From NCBI GenBank assembly GCA_004322045.1, contig SCRN01000010.1, positions 62,001-126,000 on the forward strand: a DNA stretch of 64,000 bases, read 5' to 3'. Under the pieces are notes generated by a model. It was given only the letters and a program-made list of their open reading frames with translations. It did not search any database and was not told the DNA's origin. Source of the stretch: Paraburkholderia sp. Its GTDB lineage: Bacteria > Pseudomonadota > Gammaproteobacteria > Burkholderiales > Burkholderiaceae. This document shows, in pieces, positions 20,929 to 62,564 of the stretch (positions are counted from its first letter, which is position 1; each line of letters starts with the position of its first letter). Position numbers and translations under genes: made by a program.

Positions 20929-22101
20929 ATGTCGAAGAAGCAGCAAACCCGTTCGATCGTCGCCGCCGCCCGCACCAATGCGACGACGCTGCGCGCACCG
21001 TTGACGGCGTTCGCCGTCGCCTACCTGCTGTCGGCCTGCGGCGGGAGCGAATTGTCCGCGCCGCCCGCGGCGAGCGCCGGCGGCTCGGTGACCCCTCAGC
21101 CCCAGCCCGGCCCCACGCCCACGCCGACGGCCGCCGCCACTTCGGGCGCCCTCACCACGCTCGGCGCGACGGCCACCGACCTGGGCAACACCATTTCCTC
21201 GACTGCGATCCCCGGCGTCAGCCCGGCGCTGTCGCAAGGCGTGGGCGGCACTGTAGCCGCAACGGGAGGCGTGCTCGACGCGGCGGCCAACGCAGTCACC
21301 AGCGGCCTCGGCCAGATCGGCTCCACCTCCGACCCGGTCGGCACGACGGTAGCGGGCACGGGCTCGATAATCGGCGCGACGGGATCTGTGGTCGCGGGCG
21401 TCGCATCGACGGTCAACGCCCTCGGCCAGGGACCGCTATCCCCGCTCGCCCCGGTGACGACGCCGGTCGCCGGTGCGCTGACCACAGCCGCGAACGGCAT
21501 TAGCGCCGGGGGTCAAGTGCTCGGCAATACGCTCGCTTCGTCAGCCGTTCAGCAGGTCACGCAGCCGCTCAGCTCGGCCGTCACGCCGCTCGTGATCACG
21601 CTCGGCCAGCAAACTCAAAGTGTCGGCACGACAACGGGCATCGGCCAACCGGTTTCGGGGCTGCTCGGCCAGATCGGCGGCGCAGTCCAAAGCGCAGGCG
21701 CGCAAGTGGCCGGCGCATCGGCCAACCCGCTCGCGGCCGACGTCGGCCATTTGATCTCGGGCGTGGGCACCACCATCACAAATGCGGGTGGCCTGGTCAA
21801 TCCGAACGGACCCAACGGCGCCGCACCGATCCCGGGCCTCATCACGAGCCTCGTCGGCAGTTCGACGAATGGCGTGCAGCCGGGCGCGCCCTCGGCCGGT
21901 GGCGGGAGCGGCAGCGCGGGCGCGAGCGGACCGCTGTCATCGCTGACGGGGCTGCTGTCGGGCGCCGGCGCGGCCAGCCCCCTTGCACCGCTCACCAGTG
22001 CACTCGGCTCTGCGGGCACGGCGAGCACCGGAACGAGTTCACCGACGGGCGGCCTGAACTCGTTGCTTGGGAGCTCGCCGCTGGCGGGCAAACTGCCTTG
22101 A
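20929..22101 (+). CDS. Gly/Ala/Ser/Thr-rich repeat lipoprotein 2
   Basis: 390 residues from the ATG at 20929 (GAGGAG 8 nt upstream), 26 nt after lipoprotein 1. The signal ends in LLSAC|GGSE. It shares the layout of its neighbour: Pro-rich linker, IPGVSP, STSDPVGTT, SPLAPVT, AVQQVTQPLS, QTQSVGTTTGIG, then a Gly/Ala-rich end. No known catalytic or TPS secretion domain is visible. The two genes are tandem paralogues and almost certainly one operon with the TpsB gene. Confidence 0.7.
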   Translation: MSKKQQTRSIVAAARTNATTLRAPLTAFAVAYLLSACGGSELSAPPAASAGGSVTPQPQPGPTPTPTAAATSGALTTLGATATDLGNTISSTAIPGVSPALSQGVGGTVAATGGVLDAAANAVTSGLGQIGSTSDPVGTTVAGTGSIIGATGSVVAGVASTVNALGQGPLSPLAPVTTPVAGALTTAANGISAGGQVLGNTLASSAVQQVTQPLSSAVTPLVITLGQQTQSVGTTTGIGQPVSGLLGQIGGAVQSAGAQVAGASANPLAADVGHLISGVGTTITNAGGLVNPNGPNGAAPIPGLITSLVGSSTNGVQPGAPSAGGGSGSAGASGPLSSLTGLLSGAGAASPLAPLTSALGSAGTASTGTSSPTGGLNSLLGSSPLAGKLP

Positions 22102-22282
22102 ACACCTTAGCGCCTTAGCGCATTAAACGCCGCACCCGACGCGCGAGCCTCGCCACGGCCCGCGCGGTCGGAGAAACATTGCGCTCGAGCGCGCTCAGCG
22201 CCGCATGCACGAACGCACGAACGAACGAACAAAGCAGAGTCCCAAAGGGCTCGCACAAAGAACAGGCCAACGAGGACGACAA

Positions 22283-23974
22283 ATGATTAGGACACCAAAC
22301 CAATGGTTTTGGCTCGCCGTTGCCGCGGCGAGCGCGGCAAGCTCGGCATTCGGGCAAGCACGGCCGGCAGCAAGCGGCAACCCGCTCGATGCGTTACCGC
22401 AAATCCGAACGCCTGACCGCGAACCGCAAATCAGCGTGCAGATCCAGCCGAACCCGCAGCAAGTGCAACAACTGCTCGCCACTCATCTGACGCCAAGCAA
22501 GGTGCAGATCGACGGCGTGAAGGCGATCCCGTTCGCCGATGTCGCTCGTCATTTCAGCGTGCTGGTGGGCAAAGACATCACGATCGGCGCCCTCGTCGAG
22601 GCCGCCAATGCCGTGACTCGCCTCTATCAAACGCGCGGCTACGCGCTCTCGTTCGCATTCATCCCCGCTCAGACGTTCGAAAACGGCGTCGTGCACGTCA
22701 CGGTGGTCGAGGGCTACGTTGCGAACGTCGAAATCAAGGGCAACCCTGGCAGCACGGAGCATAAGATCCGCAGCATCGCTGCTCACATTCGCAACGAACG
22801 ACCGCTGCGCCGCGCGACGTTCGAGCGTTACGTCAATGCATTGGGGCTGCTGCCCGGCGTCAAAATCGCCGCGTCGGTGCAGCCGCCGCAAACCACCGAC
22901 GGCGCGACCACACTCGCCCTGAACGTCGAGCGCAAGCCCTTGAACGTCGCCACCGGAATCGACTTTCATCACCCGGGGATACAAGCTCTCGTGACCGTCA
23001 CGGAAAACGGGCTCGCTTCGCTCGGCGAAGAACTGAGCGCCTCCACGTTGGTGCCGAAAGGCCGCGACAATCAAAGTTTCTATGCCCTACAGGGCGCCTT
23101 GCCGATCGGTGACGAGGGGCTCGTCGCAAAGCTCAACGGCTCGCACTATCGCGGCAATCCCGTCGACAACCCGGGCCTGCCTTCGTACATCAAGCGCACC
23201 GTGGTGAGCGAGAAGCTGGGGCTCGCGGCTGCCTACCCGCTCTATTTGAGCAATACGCGCAGCCTCATGGGCACCCTGTCCGCCTATGCCTCCCACGACG
23301 AAAACAGTTATCTGAATACGCTCACGGGAGCGACGCTTTCCTTGCGTTCGCAAGTGCGCGTCGTGCAAGCTCAGATCGACTATGCCGACACCCGCCAGGG
23401 GCAAACGCGCCGGGCTAGCTTAAACGTCGCCAAGGCCTTCGACGTGCTCGGCGCATCGAAGGCGGCCGACACGAACCTGCCCGGCGTGACCGAAACGAAC
23501 CCTGTCTCGCTCACCTTCGTTCGCACCGCGGCGAGCTTTTCGCAGACGAACGAATGGCCGTTCAAGATCGGAACCGCTATAGCGCTCACGGGGCAATACA
23601 GCCCGGATTCATTACCGACATCGGAGCAAATCGCCTTTGGCGCACAACGCTTTGCACTCGGCTACGAGCCCGGCGAAGCGGCGGGCGATTCGGGATTCGG
23701 CGCATCGTTCGAAGTCAACCGCGCGATTGCGGTAACGTCCCGGTATTTGCAGACGCTAACGCCCTATATCTCGTTCGACATGGCGCGCGTCTATCTGCAT
23801 ACCGGCCCCACGGCGCCGAACAAGCTGGCATCGCTCGCACTCGGCTTTCGTATCAGCGACAACAAGCACTACAACCTCGATCTTTCTATCGCCAAGGCCG
23901 TTGGGGATGCACCGATCGAAAGCCCATCGCGCAGCCCGCGGCTCAATGCGACCTTTTCCTACCAACTTTATTGA
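22283..23974 (+). CDS. TpsB-type two-partner secretion translocator (ShlB/FhaC/HecB family)
   Basis: 563 residues from the ATG at 22283 (GAGGA upstream), with a signal peptide ending at about AFGQ. A POTRA_2 domain follows (TPSKVQIDGVKAIPFADV, LVEAANAVTRLYQTRGYALSFAFIP), then a ShlB-type POTRA/hinge (VVEGYVANVEIKGN) and a C-terminal 16-stranded Omp85-like barrel ending in LNATFSYQLY with the terminal aromatic. FhaC-type proteins export large TpsA partners. No TpsA with a TPS domain is nearby; the only candidate passengers are the two upstream lipoproteins. Confidence 0.88.
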   Translation: MIRTPNQWFWLAVAAASAASSAFGQARPAASGNPLDALPQIRTPDREPQISVQIQPNPQQVQQLLATHLTPSKVQIDGVKAIPFADVARHFSVLVGKDITIGALVEAANAVTRLYQTRGYALSFAFIPAQTFENGVVHVTVVEGYVANVEIKGNPGSTEHKIRSIAAHIRNERPLRRATFERYVNALGLLPGVKIAASVQPPQTTDGATTLALNVERKPLNVATGIDFHHPGIQALVTVTENGLASLGEELSASTLVPKGRDNQSFYALQGALPIGDEGLVAKLNGSHYRGNPVDNPGLPSYIKRTVVSEKLGLAAAYPLYLSNTRSLMGTLSAYASHDENSYLNTLTGATLSLRSQVRVVQAQIDYADTRQGQTRRASLNVAKAFDVLGASKAADTNLPGVTETNPVSLTFVRTAASFSQTNEWPFKIGTAIALTGQYSPDSLPTSEQIAFGAQRFALGYEPGEAAGDSGFGASFEVNRAIAVTSRYLQTLTPYISFDMARVYLHTGPTAPNKLASLALGFRISDNKHYNLDLSIAKAVGDAPIESPSRSPRLNATFSYQLY

Positions 23975-58664: not shown

Positions 58665-59054
58665 GCCCGGGTGATGAAATTGGTAAACATAGCGGACTTA
58701 AGCGATTGAGTGCCCGGCCGGAAACGGTCGGTGCAGAACCCTTCAAATTCGGCGAACCCCCTGGCGCGCCGGCGCTCGCGATAACCAATAGCGAGCGAAC
58801 CGATTGCGCCGAGGCAACGCCGAGCCAAGCCCGAAAATAAGGCCTGCTCAACGAGGCCGTTTCGCGGAAGGTGTAGAGACTAGACGGGGGGCGCCTAATG
58901 CGATGCGCACGAGCATGCTCGTGTTCGAACGCAATGGCGAAGGCATAGTCCAGCGCACGAACGACGATGCTAGCATCGTCGGCATCGAAAGATGCAGTGT
59001 GACGAAAATCCGCCGCCTCGCGGCTTGCCGGTTCGAGTCCGGTCCCGGGCACCA
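58665..59054 (+). tRNA. tRNA-Leu(UAA), interrupted by an intron
   Basis: Exon 1 is 58665-58699 and exon 2 is 59005-59054. Joined, they fold as a class II tRNA: acceptor GCCCGGG/CCCGGGC, D stem AUG/CAU, anticodon stem GCGGA/UCCGC around the loop CUUAAAA (anticodon UAA, Leu), a variable arm GCC/GGC, T stem with loop UUCGAGU, and a genomically encoded CCA. The gene is split between U34 and A35. A continuous reading of 58665-58750 does not fold as a tRNA, so standard scanners may miss it or call it a pseudogene. Confidence 0.93.
58700..59004 (+). ncRNA. Group I intron in tRNA-Leu(UAA)
   Basis: 305 nt, starting after a U (P1 with the U.G wobble: 58696-58699 with 58708-58711) and ending in G at 59004 (omega-G). 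P2 is a 7-bp stem with a GAAA loop (58714-58731). P3 pairs 58739-58744 with 58886-58891. P7 pairs GACUA 58878-58882 with UAGUC 58946-58950, next to an R-element-like AGAGACUAGACGG. P8 has CGCC/GGCG and UGCG/CGCA pairs (58892-58939). P9 is a 9-bp hairpin (58962-58981), with a further GAAA-capped stem at 58982-58995. It matches the small cyanobacterial tRNA-Leu(UAA) intron in insertion point and helix order. No endonuclease ORF. Confidence 0.9.
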
Positions 59055-59090
59055 TGGATATGTTCCGGCTTGTGCCGATGTGTTTCGAAG

Positions 59091-59124
59091 AACCCCGCTC
59101 GATCAAGGTCTTGCGGGGTTTTTT
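59091..59124 (+). terminator. Terminator of the tRNA-Leu transcript
   Basis: AACCCCGC (59091-59098) and GCGGGGTT (59113-59120) form an 8-bp stem followed by TTTT, 37 nt after the tRNA 3' end. Confidence 0.8.
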
Positions 59125-59191
59125 CTTCCTTTCTTGGAGCGGCGCGATCCTTCGACAGCCGGTCGTGTACGGTGGTAGCTATGGTGGTATC

Positions 59192-59640
59192 TGGCTGACC
59201 GAGCTCAAGCAGCGGGTTGAACCCGCACGTCAACGCGCAGCGGCAAGCGCGAATCGCGAGCTCGTCATTCTGTACTGGCAGATCGGTCAAGATATTTTGG
59301 ACCGTCAGCAACGCCAGGGATGGGGTGCGAACTCGAACGGGATCTAAAGGCGGCTTTTCCCGACATGCAAGGGTTTTCACCGCGCAATTTCAAGTACATG
59401 CGGGCGTTAGCCCTAGCATGGCCGACGCCCGCAATTGTGCAACAGGCCGTTGCACAATTGCCTTGGTCTCATATCGTGACCTTACTGGACAAGCTCAAGG
59501 AGCCGGGCGCACGCAATTGGTACGCCGCCCAATCGCTCGAGCATGGCTGGTCGCGCAACGTGCTTGCGATGCAGATCGATACCCACGCTTATTCGCGTGC
59601 CGGTGCCGGCTCGTCAGGATTTGCGCTGCATCTACTCACG
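59192..59640 (+). pseudogene. DUF1016 (YhcG-type PDDEXK nuclease) gene remnant
   Basis: Two frames carry successive parts of the DUF1016 N-terminal domain. Frame 1 (59192-59330) has LTELKQRVEPARQRAAASAN followed by RELVILYWQIGQDILDRQ; frame 3 (from ~59320) has ERDLKAAFPDMQGFSPRNF, then YMRALALAWPTPAIVQQAVA and YAAQSLEHGWSRNVLAMQI. A small deletion/frameshift near 59322 joins them, and the C-terminal nuclease domain is absent. It sits just after the tRNA gene, a common place for island debris. Confidence 0.75.
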
Positions 59641-59654
59641 TCCATGCCGCAGCG

Positions 59655-59927
59655 GTGCAAGCGGCAAGTTCCAATGACGCCCCTGCATTGCTGTCGGAGC
59701 AACTGCGCACTGCGATCTATCAGTTGCCGGACGACGAACGCATCGTGTTGTTGCTGGTGAACGTCGAACGGTTCACTCGCGAACAGGCCGCCAATATTCT
59801 CGGCATCTCGCTCGAAGTCGTAAGCCGGCCGACGAAGTGGACCCCGAACTCATGGCGAGGTGCCTCCGAACAGATCCCGCGTGAGCCTCTCGTTCCCGCT
59901 GCAAATGCATTGGGAGCGTCGAGCTGA
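59655..59927 (+). pseudogene. ECF-type sigma factor region 4 fragment
   Basis: The frame ending at 59927 carries LRTAIYQLPDDERIVLLLVN and ERFTREQAANILGISLEVVSRP, the sigma-70 region 4.2 helix-turn-helix typical of ECF sigma factors. Regions 2 and 3 are missing, and the fragment is fused in frame to decayed DUF1016 sequence. It is not expected to be functional. Confidence 0.65.
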
Positions 59928-59973: not shown

Positions 59974-60810
59974 TCAGACTCGAGGACCGCCCTCATTTGC
60001 AGCACGGGCTTCTACCGCTCGTAGCTGCGCAAGGTCCTGCGGATGCGTGATGCTCCATTGCGCTGCCGCCTGCTGTGCCGTAAAGCCGTCACGCTCTATC
60101 TTTAACTGGGCACCCAGCATTTGTGAATAGTCCGCCCGCGGACCGCCTTCATCTGCGACGCGGGCTTCTACAGCCTGCAACTGCTCGAGGTCCAATGGAT
60201 GTAGAGGCACGATCCCGATCGTCGCAACTGCCTGTTGGGCCGTTAAGCCTCGATGCTCTATATAGAACTTCGCACCCTCCAGGTGAAAATAATTCGCTCG
60301 ATCACCGCTTTCATTTGCAACGCGAACTTCGCCAGCCTGCAGCTCTTTAAGATCCTCCGGATGTGCGATGCCCCATTTTGCGGCTGCCTGTTGGGCTGTT
60401 AGGCCTTCATTTTTTATGCATTCCTCAGCATGCGACATTTCCGCATATGTTGTTCGAGGAGCAACGGAATTCTCAGAGAAATCACTCGCCCTCAGTCGGA
60501 TATCCGACAAATGATCGATAACGGCGACTTCAGGATTTTCAAGAAATCTCCTCTCAATCTCTCTAATAATATCCGTCCTCATATTCATCGGATATCTCTT
60601 TAATATCATCCAAATCCTTGGATCTGCTAGTTCGGCATCCAATTTTTCTCGCCAACCTGATTGCAAGGATTGAGGGTGCGTCGACACGTCGAAACCGCGG
60701 TTGTTCGGCAAAGAATTCTCTTTATCAGCAATTTTCTCTTGCTCATCACCCAACAGGGCTTGATTTTTATCGGGAAATTCTAACTCACCATCTGTATTGG
60801 TGATTTTCAT
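59974..60810 (-). CDS. Unknown protein with three ~53-residue repeats
   Basis: 278 residues from the ATG at 60810 (AGGA 6 nt upstream). No known family was recognised. Residues 1-125 are polar and charged, and AT-rich in codon use. From about 127 there are three repeats with period 52-55: each has a helix ending in GLTAQQAAAKW (or GFTAQQ/GLTAQQAV), a turn with HPEDL/HPLDL/HPQDL, and a helix ELQAGEVRVAN/EARVADEGGPRA. The third stops after EGGPRV. The soluble, repeat-built, low-GC character recalls secreted effectors or repeat adaptors, but no secretion signal was identified. Confidence 0.6.
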   Translation of the reverse strand: MKITNTDGELEFPDKNQALLGDEQEKIADKENSLPNNRGFDVSTHPQSLQSGWREKLDAELADPRIWMILKRYPMNMRTDIIREIERRFLENPEVAVIDHLSDIRLRASDFSENSVAPRTTYAEMSHAEECIKNEGLTAQQAAAKWGIAHPEDLKELQAGEVRVANESGDRANYFHLEGAKFYIEHRGLTAQQAVATIGIVPLHPLDLEQLQAVEARVADEGGPRADYSQMLGAQLKIERDGFTAQQAAAQWSITHPQDLAQLRAVEARAANEGGPRV

Positions 60811-60950
60811 TATCATCCTGACAGGAAAACGGAGCATAGGCTGTCGAGTTTCTCGCCAAACAAGGCACGTATGGATTCAGGTTAGCGAAAATTGTCACCG
60901 GTAAGCGAATGCCCGTGCGATGATGTGCCACGGCCAATATGAGAGATGGG

Positions 60951-61334: not shown

Positions 61335-61634
61335 TCATCGCCTTTCATTCGGGTCTCACGTCGCCTTATAGGTTGGGCTGGAGTCAGACGAGTCACGCAG
61401 TGCGCCCGACGCTTCGGCGGATCAAGTCAAGGAACGCCGAATGACGACGGGGTCGCCTAGATCGGCGACACCCATTAGCGCCCATTAGCGGACCGGTCTG
61501 TCGAAAGCATGGCTCGCTATCTCCGCATTGGGTCGACTATGCACTTGAGATGGCAGAGCAGACCGACGTTTGATAGTGCGGCGGCCCGCGGACAGTCGCT
61601 TGCCGACCAACCATTACCATACGAGTGCCTGCAC
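61335..61634. other. Intergenic region, nothing recognised
   Basis: 300 bp between the acidic protein and the ADP-ribosylglycohydrolase gene. No gene, repeat or terminator is supported. Confidence 0.4.
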
Positions 61635-62564
61635 ATGCCGACGATGACTGTGTCCCGACTAAACCGCCTGCGCGGCGGCTTGTTCGGCCTGTTGATTGGG
61701 GACGCTTTGGGCGTTCCATACGAATTCCATAGCGCGGCGTCGATCTCTACGTTAAGCACCATTGAGATGACACCACCGCCGAATTTCGAGCGCGCTCATG
61801 AAGGTGTCCCGCCCGGCACATGGAGCGATGACGGTGCGCAGACGCTTGCGCTCCTTGATGCGATATTGCGCGACCGAGAACTGGACCTAGACATGTTCGC
61901 CGACAACCTGCTGGACTGGTTTCACCGCGGAGCATTTACGCCGGATGGAAAGGTCTTCGACGTCGGCCTGCAAACGCAGCGTGCCTTTCACCAGTTAGCG
62001 TCGGGCGTTGCCCCAGCCGTCGCGGGGCCTATTGACGAACGCGATAACGGAAATGGGGCGCTCATGCGATGCCTTCCTGTCATCATGGTGGCGACGTCAC
62101 GCGAGGAAGTGATTCATCTTGCTCGCAAGCAGAGTTTGGTAACCCATGGACATGAGCGTTCCCAGTTATGTTGCGCACTCTACTGCCTGACGGCGGTGGG
62201 CATTCTTGAAAACATGTCTGCCGCAGATGCCGTACGGGCGGCAGAAGACGAATTGCTGGAACGCTACGCTGACATTGCAGAAGAAGCTGAATTGAAAATT
62301 GCGTTGGATGGTCGCTTCGACGCGCCGCAGGGATCCGGTTATGTAGTTGACAGTTTTTGGTCGGCCGTTCACTGTCTATTGTCGACGCGCAATTACGAAG
62401 ACTGTGTCAAGCGCGCGATAATGCTCGGCAACGACACAGACACCACGGCCGCTATCGCCGGTGGATTGGCAGGGGTTCTGTATGGTGAGGACGGGCTGCC
62501 GGCACGGTGGCTTGCAACTTTGCGGCGGAAAGAAGTGGTCGAGGGTCTGTTGGCGAAGCTTTGA
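61635..62564 (+). CDS. ADP-ribosylglycohydrolase-family protein
   Basis: 309 residues from ATG 61635 (an ATG at 61644 is close by; the frame is open further upstream). Core motifs of the DraG/ARH fold: GGLFGLLIGDALGVPYEFH, PPGTWSDDGAQTLALLDAIL with the metal-binding DD, RDNGNGALMRCLPV, and C-terminal MLGNDTDTTAAIAGGLAGVLYG with the second metal site. Such enzymes remove ADP-ribose from arginine or other residues, or metabolise related nucleotides. All metal ligands look intact. Alone in its orientation within the accessory tail. Confidence 0.9.
   Translation: MPTMTVSRLNRLRGGLFGLLIGDALGVPYEFHSAASISTLSTIEMTPPPNFERAHEGVPPGTWSDDGAQTLALLDAILRDRELDLDMFADNLLDWFHRGAFTPDGKVFDVGLQTQRAFHQLASGVAPAVAGPIDERDNGNGALMRCLPVIMVATSREEVIHLARKQSLVTHGHERSQLCCALYCLTAVGILENMSAADAVRAAEDELLERYADIAEEAELKIALDGRFDAPQGSGYVVDSFWSAVHCLLSTRNYEDCVKRAIMLGNDTDTTAAIAGGLAGVLYGEDGLPARWLATLRRKEVVEGLLAKL

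What the first reader, a model, noticed from the sequence alone, without database searches (positions are those of the whole stretch)
58665..59054. Group I intron splitting tRNA-Leu(UAA) in a betaproteobacterium
Seen: perfect tRNA halves at 58665-58699 and 59005-59054 separated by 305 nt; insertion after U34; a U at the 5' splice site and a G at the 3' end; P1, P2, P3, P7, P8 and P9 pairings and an R-element-like AGAGACUAGACGG. Established: small group I introns sit at this exact place in tRNA-Leu(UAA) of cyanobacteria and plastids, and other bacterial tRNAs carry group I introns (e.g. tRNA-Ile in Azoarcus). The host and site combination here suggests either horizontal transfer into the same site or vertical inheritance within a Burkholderiaceae clade. 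If the genome has one such tRNA gene, splicing is essential to read UUA codons.
Basis: partly seen in the sequence, partly recalled or inferred. Interest (0 to 1): 0.88.

Follow-up and report, generated by a model that had tools for sequence, protein, structure and literature searches.

The report
Self-splicing intron inside tRNA-Leu(UAA)
The gene for one leucine tRNA of this proteobacterium is split inside its anticodon by a small intron of the RNA-catalysed (group I) kind, one of a family that sits at the same spot in many bacteria and that the standard tools tried here miss.

Summary
Confirmed. Window 58665-59054 (+) is a tRNA-Leu(UAA) gene with a 305-nt intron (58700-59004) after U34. The joined exons are called as an intact 85-nt tRNA. 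The intron has the group I core, a U.G at the 5' splice site and a terminal G, and its core helices covary across relatives. The Rfam group I model misses this copy, scores four of its betaproteobacterial relatives below cut-off, and scores four cyanobacterial same-site introns well above it. No other UAA tRNA gene was found in the draft genome, so splicing is probably needed to read UUA. All 11 genus genomes held have it, mostly beside the same gene: vertical inheritance within the genus. The host is not peculiar: of 61 genomes first searched, 24 have such an intron and 10 a confirmed intron-free gene, and same-site introns occur in several phyla. Six gammaproteobacterial copies hold an antisense HNH-like ORF. 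In passing: five related introns in tRNA-Leu(CAA) follow C34, giving C-G in place of the near-universal U.G; in three near-complete genomes, one of them Ca. Vallotia tarda, no intron-free CAA arm was found. Splicing is inferred, not shown. New member of a known kind.

The parts
58665..58699 (+). 5' exon of tRNA-Leu(UAA), acceptor strand to U34
   Evidence: ARAGORN -i; sequence
58700..59004 (+). group I intron, 305 nt, Azoarcus/cyanobacterial tRNA type (IC3 label recalled)
   Evidence: ARAGORN -i; model R1 142.3 bits (the window's own copy, L001, is one of R1's 23 training rows); covariation
59005..59054 (+). 3' exon of tRNA-Leu(UAA), A35 to encoded CCA
   Evidence: ARAGORN -i
58696..58711 (+). 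P1: exon ACUU (58696-58699) with intron GAGU (58708-58711); U34.G58708 at the splice site
   Evidence: sequence; invariant in 23 of 23 rows
58712..58734 (+). P2 hairpin with GAAA loop
   Evidence: 4 of 9 pairs with double changes
58739..58744 (+). P3 5' strand (CCCUUC), pairs with 58886-58891
   Evidence: 100% paired in 23 rows, 2 of 6 pairs with double changes
58749..58823 (+). P4 (58749-58754 with 58818-58823) enclosing P5
58825..58871 (+). P6
   Evidence: two outer pairs invariant, four inner pairs all with double changes but only 77% paired
58878..58882 (+). P7 5' strand (GACUA), pairs with 58946-58950 (UAGUC)
   Evidence: 100% paired; GACUA/UAGUC is GAGCA/UGCUC in 6 of 23 rows
58886..58891 (+). 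P3 3' strand (GGGGGG)
58892..58939 (+). P8
58946..58950 (+). P7 3' strand (UAGUC)
58954..59001 (+). P9 (58954-58958 with 58997-59001) enclosing P9.1 (58962-58981) and P9.2 (58982-58995, GAAA loop)
   Evidence: P9 itself invariant
59004..59004 (+). terminal G of the intron (omega-G)
   Evidence: sequence; G in all 23 rows of A4
59091..59124 (+). probable intrinsic terminator AACCCCGC-N14-GCGGGGTT with T-run
   Evidence: read by eye; the scanner did not list it, its loop limit is 8

Best explanation
A functional, self-splicing group I intron of the Azoarcus/cyanobacterial tRNA type interrupts what appears to be the only tRNA-Leu(UAA) gene. The pre-tRNA is transcribed as one RNA; the intron folds (P4-P6 and P3-P9 domains), its guide GAGU pairs with ACUU of the 5' exon (P1), external GTP bound in P7 attacks after U34 (58699/58700), and the freed U34 3'-OH attacks after G59004, joining U34 to A35 and making the UAA anticodon. 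Shown: gene, boundaries, core fold by covariation, no second UAA gene in the draft, conservation in the genus. Inferred from the family's biochemistry: the chemistry, GTP use, and that the mature tRNA is made and needed for UUA codons. Its ancestry is vertical within this genus; gain, loss and transfer act on a wider scale.
For: Exact tRNA halves and 305-nt intron after U34. Core covariation incl. the P3/P7 pseudoknot, P2 and P9 hairpins. Relatives match RF00028: cyanobacterial Leu introns 77.5-96.3 bits (4 of 4 scanned), Ile2 introns 49.1-64.5 (3 of 3), beta Leu introns 29.2-39.5 (4 of 5, all under the cut-off of 50; the window copy L001 none), Arg(CCU) intron L110 none. 44 tRNA-model hits in the genome, all read with ARAGORN: Leu genes CAA, CAG x2, UAG, GAG and no intron-free UAA; R1 has a single hit in the genome. 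34 UUA codons in 20 of 35 non-overlapping ORFs of 200 aa or more taken mechanically. In the genus the introns are 73-95% identical to this one while the exons differ only in the variable arm: exons and core are under purifying selection. Genus 11 of 11.
Against: RF00028 does not report this copy. P1 and P9 cannot be tested by covariation. No RNA data: neither expression nor splicing is shown. No sigma-70-like promoter was found by the simple scan. The genome is a 54-contig draft and several common tRNAs (for example Tyr, Ala-UGC, Ile-GAU) are not among the 44 hits, so a second UAA gene in an assembly gap cannot be wholly excluded.
Confidence: 0.95

Rival explanations
1. Group I intron that needs a host protein (for example a chaperone or synthetase) to splice in vivo and is a poor ribozyme alone.
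For: Longer P5, P6, P8 and P9.1 than the 214-235-nt relatives.
Against: All core elements and both GAAA hairpins are kept; small relatives of this type are known self-splicers (recalled: Azoarcus, Anabaena).
Confidence: 0.2
2. Recent horizontal acquisition from cyanobacteria into the same site.
For: Same site and shared core; holding the beta-type Leu introns and the cyanobacterial introns together as one clade is not rejected (p-AU 0.94).
Against: Nine of ten cyanobacterial rows form their own starred clade away from the window; the nearest rows are same-genus, then Paraburkholderia and Burkholderia; 11 of 11 genus members have it.
Confidence: 0.03
3. Decayed tRNA pseudogene with a spacer, the real UAA tRNA lying in an assembly gap.
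For: RF00028 misses it; draft assembly.
Against: Exons intact and near-identical in the genus; covarying core; no intron-free UAA copy among the 44 tRNA hits; in each of 10 same-genus genomes BLAST gives one full-length place plus one 3'-exon-only match, which in the window's own genome is the CAA gene.
Confidence: 0.02

Closest known systems
[quoted passage not shown]
   Same: Same tRNA, same position (after U34), same core order, U.G at 5' splice site, terminal G; the cyanobacterial copies fetched match R1.
   Different: Nine of ten cyanobacterial copies form a separate clade; the window copy is longer and is missed by RF00028, while four of four cyanobacterial ones scanned pass it.
tRNA-Ile(CAU) introns of betaproteobacteria (PMC8450103, passages read, names Acidovorax and Burkholderia; Azoarcus recalled)
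   Same: Same core motifs (Azoarcus sequence recalled, not fetched); Ile2 introns of the order match R1.
   Different: They lie after U36 (or, in a second family seen here, after U33) of tRNA-Ile2, not after U34 of tRNA-Leu.
tRNA-Arg(CCU) introns (Agrobacterium type, recalled)
   Same: Same class of intron, match R1. PMC5733544 (passages read) cites earlier work that Leu introns are close to Ile(CAU) and Arg(CCU) introns.
   Different: Other tRNA, after U36.
tmRNA T-loop group I introns (PMC11915505, passages read)
   Same: Bacterial structural-RNA group I introns, same boundary rules.
   Different: Other gene and site; 15 sequences there have C at -1 paired with A.

Membership tests
Group I intron | Conserved P3-P8 core with P3/P7 pseudoknot | tested here: met
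   P3 and P7 100% paired in 23 rows, each with 2 pairs showing double changes; whole structure 0/500 shuffles as high.
Group I intron | U.G pair at the 5' splice site in P1 and terminal G | tested here: met
   U34.G58708 and G59004.
Group I intron | Match to Rfam RF00028 above gathering score | tested here: not met
   No match for the window copy at E<=1, for L001 at E<=10 or in the genome. L013, whose intron is 70.6% identical, scores 33 bits, E 9.5e-5, below the cut-off of 50; other beta Leu introns 29.2-39.5; cyanobacterial same-site introns 77.5-96.3. The cut-off is a curated annotation threshold, not a defining property of the class.
Group I intron | GTP-dependent self-splicing | not testable with these tools
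   Needs RNA biochemistry.
tRNA-Leu(UAA)-site intron family | Insertion between U34 and A35 of tRNA-Leu(UAA) | tested here: met
tRNA-Leu(UAA)-site intron family | Common descent with the cyanobacterial introns at that site | tested here: inconclusive
   All Leu introns as one clade not rejected (p-AU 0.82), but only 137 columns, few supported deep forks, and groups named after a first tree was seen.
IC3 subgroup | Subgroup-specific model match | not tested
   Label recalled from Azoarcus and Anabaena; no subgroup model was run.

The most novel reading that the evidence does not exclude
The tRNA-Leu(UAA) intron is not a cyanobacterial and plastid speciality but one lineage spread over several bacterial phyla, kept mobile in places by an antisense HNH endonuclease gene, and carried over into the sister tRNA-Leu(CAA), by a jump or by anticodon change of a UAA gene. 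There, five cases seen here end the 5' exon in C34 and keep the guide G, so they would splice from a Watson-Crick C-G pair, breaking the near-universal U.G rule, in what looks like the only CAA gene of three near-complete genomes.
Probability: 0.35. Interest if true: 0.72.

Novelty: new member of a known kind. Interest (0 to 1): 0.5.

Why it matters
If it works as inferred, reading UUA depends on a ribozyme in a whole genus, yet ARAGORN in default mode and RF00028 miss the tRNA and the intron, so leucine tRNA tables of such genomes may well lack UAA. The wide, patchy same-site distribution bears on the old question whether the tRNA-Leu(UAA) intron is ancient or mobile, and the HNH-bearing and C34 relatives make both mobility and the U.G rule testable.

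Tried and rejected
Rfam RF00028 as the sole test: set aside as too strict after the positive control. Tombusvirus 3' UTR hit at 59047-59135 (22.2 bits against a cut-off of 33): taken as chance. ARAGORN tRNA-Asp(gtc) with a 527-nt intron at 21804-22427: mispaired, taken as a false positive, not followed up. Deep branching order of the introns: not resolvable with 137 columns; in the free quick tree the Leu introns are not one group, yet holding them together gave a higher likelihood, so neither is claimed. Rows left out: 19 of the 191 matches before the first tree (L001, a copy of the window; the split or ORF-bearing introns L169, L172, L176, L201, L211, L244; L190, L152, L151, L153, L150, L140, L133), and a further 26 of 172 (long branches and near-copies). 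tRNA-Leu 3' end as an integration site: BLAST of the genome with the whole gene gave only the CAA-gene match besides itself. Phage records: 3 records, each with the 3' exon only, 13% of the query. Literature: ten searches were answered (two searches listed 20 of 48 and 10 of 14 papers). Among titles and abstract starts listed I saw none on tRNA-Leu(UAA) introns in proteobacteria or on tRNA-Leu(CAA) introns. Passages, not whole texts, were read in PMC8450103, PMC4033280, PMC3984707, PMC11915505, PMC6125680, PMC6274277 and PMC5733544; PMC4033280 already lists group I introns in tRNAs of alpha- and betaproteobacteria in general. Most subscription journals are not held, so novelty is not claimed.

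Full report
What was checked. The joined exons are called as a complete 85-nt tRNA-Leu(taa) with anticodon stem GCGGA/UCCGC and loop CUUAAAA.

Group I identity. The intron reads P1 (ACUU/GAGU), P2 with a GAAA loop, P3, P4, P5, P6, P7 (GACUA/UAGUC), P3', P8, P7', P9 with P9.1 and a GAAA-capped P9.2, and a terminal G (coordinates in parts). On 23 homologous cores (alignment A1) the P3-P8 structure is paired in 94.7% of 826 cells, with double changes in 18 of 36 pairs and 0 of 500 shuffles as high; P7 is GACUA/UAGUC in 17 rows and GAGCA/UGCUC in 6, and P3, P5, P6 and P8 hold double changes too. On 23 closer relatives P2, P9.1 and P9.2 hold double changes, while P1 and P9 are invariant. The structure was drawn from these sequences, which favours it on the share of cells paired; the double changes depend on that less. 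One weak spot: the inner P6 pairs are only 77% paired.

Rfam. RF00028 gives nothing for the window. As a positive control 13 loci were scanned: cyanobacterial tRNA-Leu introns scored 77.5-96.3 bits (4 of 4), Ile2 introns 49.1-64.5 (3 of 3), beta tRNA-Leu introns L052 39.5, L019 34.2, L013 33.0, L057 29.2, and nothing for L001 (the window) or L110 (Arg). L013 is 70.6% identical to the window intron over its length. The score fades along the series; that longer peripheral stems cause this is my inference. My own model R1 (156 positions) gives the window 142.3 bits, but the window copy was among its training rows.

Copy number. The tRNA model finds 44 tRNA genes in the 54-contig genome; all 44 places were read with ARAGORN. 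Leucine genes are CAA, CAG twice, UAG and GAG, plus this UAA gene, which the tRNA model itself does not list. R1 hits the genome once. UUA occurs 34 times, in 20 of 35 non-overlapping ORFs of the window taken mechanically. C34 of the CAA tRNA should not read UUA (established decoding rules), so splicing here is probably needed. Caveat: several common tRNAs are missing from the 44, as expected of a draft with collapsed repeats.

Inheritance. All 11 held genomes of the genus have an R1 hit at the Leu gene; one of them, G006, has a second hit that was not read. The ten other introns are 73.4-95.4% identical to this one while the exons differ only in the variable arm. A gene for an NlpB/DapX lipoprotein (PF06804; BamC by recall) is found beside the tRNA in 9 of 11 same-genus loci, each holding 1.5 kb of flank; L003 and L009 gave no match. 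Of the 61 genomes (own included), 24 have an ARAGORN-confirmed Leu(UAA) intron, 10 a confirmed intron-free UAA gene (G019, G020, G025, G030, G031, G032, G037, G048, G051, G056) and 27 were not determined. The nearest named relatives are Paraburkholderia and Burkholderia. The window's genus was not named. Mycetohabitans megaplasmids and Ca. Vallotia plasmids, 13 records in all, carry the same gene and intron at about 74% and 68% identity.

Spread. R1 hits 63 of 399 genomes of the order (47 of 159 genera) and 41 of 398 of the phylum; the two draws overlap, stricter filters applied, and any tRNA host counts. Hosts read among the loci I inspected are Leu(UAA), Leu(CAA), Ser(UGA), Arg(CCU), Thr(UGU) and Ile2(CAU) at two sites, after U36 and after U33; several were reassigned by eye where ARAGORN placed the boundary wrongly, and a few stayed unassigned. 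Of the other 24, two match R1 (L180, L198), two look like cut-off tRNA-Leu genes at the end of the stretch held and gave no R1 match (L175, L258), and 20 I take as chance and did not test further. The 95 fall in Gammaproteobacteria 28, Alphaproteobacteria 25, Betaproteobacteria 10, unplaced Pseudomonadota 4, Cyanobacteriota 10, Bacteroidota 7, Acidobacteriota 6, Bacillota, Chloroflexota and Planctomycetota 1 each, and 2 unranked. All 95 match R1 at E<=0.001. Many are metagenome bins, so single cases may be misbinned, and the capped scan allows no rates.

Trees. In a quick tree of 172 cores the window sits with its genus, Paraburkholderia and one other family member (15 rows, starred), next to Burkholderia, inside a starred set of 63 that is mostly betaproteobacterial but also holds Pseudomonas, Stutzerimonas and Rhodanobacter copies, a sign of transfer between classes if the weak forks hold; nine of ten cyanobacterial rows form a separate starred group, Myxacorys lies elsewhere. 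With 146 rows, holding all Leu introns together is not rejected (p-AU 0.82), nor is the beta-type Leu group (0.99), nor that group plus cyanobacteria (0.94); in all three tests the held tree was better than the free one, so the quick search was far from exhaustive. One origin at this site is allowed but not shown.

Mobility. Of 10 introns longer than 330 nt inspected, six gammaproteobacterial ones of 688-698 nt hold, on the antisense strand, an ORF of about 155 aa (longer with alternative starts) with an HNH-like motif; the other four do not. Two of the six were scanned and hit HNH_3 at E 5e-4 and 8e-4, below Pfam's cut-off. No such ORF is possible in the 305-nt window intron at that length.

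The C34 relatives. Five introns in tRNA-Leu(CAA) (L056, L103, L105, L114, L274) follow C34 while the guide still reads GAG, so the splice-site pair would be C-G. Among 141 distinct 5' regions parsed (L274 not included), 131 are T with G, 4 C with G, 2 T with A in a register I did not verify, 4 unparsed. Their exons are most like one another; compared with intron-free CAA genes and with UAA exons the result is mixed (for three of the four, some UAA exon is as near or nearer), so a jump into a CAA gene and anticodon change of a UAA gene both stay open. No intron-free CAA anticodon arm was found by exact pattern in G017, G379 and G430 (99-100% complete) or G197 (68% complete); G239 has one. G017's second contig matches a Ca. 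Vallotia tarda plasmid record in length and match coordinates. PMC6274277 (passages read) calls the G-U pair a strong requisite; PMC11915505 (passages read) reports 15 tmRNA introns with C at -1 paired with A. I did not see C-G cases in print, but the searches were narrow.

Verdict. Real, most likely functional, and a new member of a known kind; the surprise lies in the breadth of the family and its odd relatives more than in the window copy.

Noticed in passing
L056, L103, L105, L114, L274 (tRNA-Leu(CAA)): Group I introns after C34 with guide G kept, giving C-G instead of U.G at the 5' splice site; no intron-free CAA arm found by pattern in three near-complete genomes.
   Followed up: partly
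L169, L172, L176, L201, L211, L244: tRNA-Leu(UAA) introns of 688-698 nt in gammaproteobacterial bins with an antisense ~155-aa HNH-like ORF.
   Followed up: partly
L018/L299 (Ca. Vallotia tarda plasmid) and L300 (Mycetohabitans rhizoxinica pBRH01): The intron-bearing tRNA-Leu(UAA) gene lies on a plasmid or megaplasmid; in the 1.2-Mb Ca. Vallotia genome both the UAA and the CAA tRNA-Leu genes hold introns.
   Followed up: partly
L121, L126, L129, L134, L136, L137, L139, L141-L144, L146-L149: A second intron family in tRNA-Ile2(CAU), read by eye as lying after U33, distinct from the site after U36; ARAGORN splits many of these wrongly.
   Followed up: partly
L115, L116, L119; L125, L130: Related introns in tRNA-Ser(UGA) after U34 and in tRNA-Thr(UGU) after U36.
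   Followed up: no
L083 69-156 (G000:C21:3018-3105): Odd 88-nt tRNA-like gene with CAU anticodon and a long variable region in the window's genome; weakest of the 44 tRNA hits.
   Followed up: no
window 59054-59760: Two overlapping ORFs in different frames match the two halves of DUF1016_N just 3' of the tRNA: the gene looks broken.
   Followed up: partly
window 59974-60837 (-): 287-aa ORF with imperfect internal repeats seen by eye; weak HTH hit below cut-off, function unknown.
   Followed up: no
window 61509-62564 (+): ADP-ribosylglycohydrolase family gene (PF03747, E 1.4e-71).
   Followed up: no
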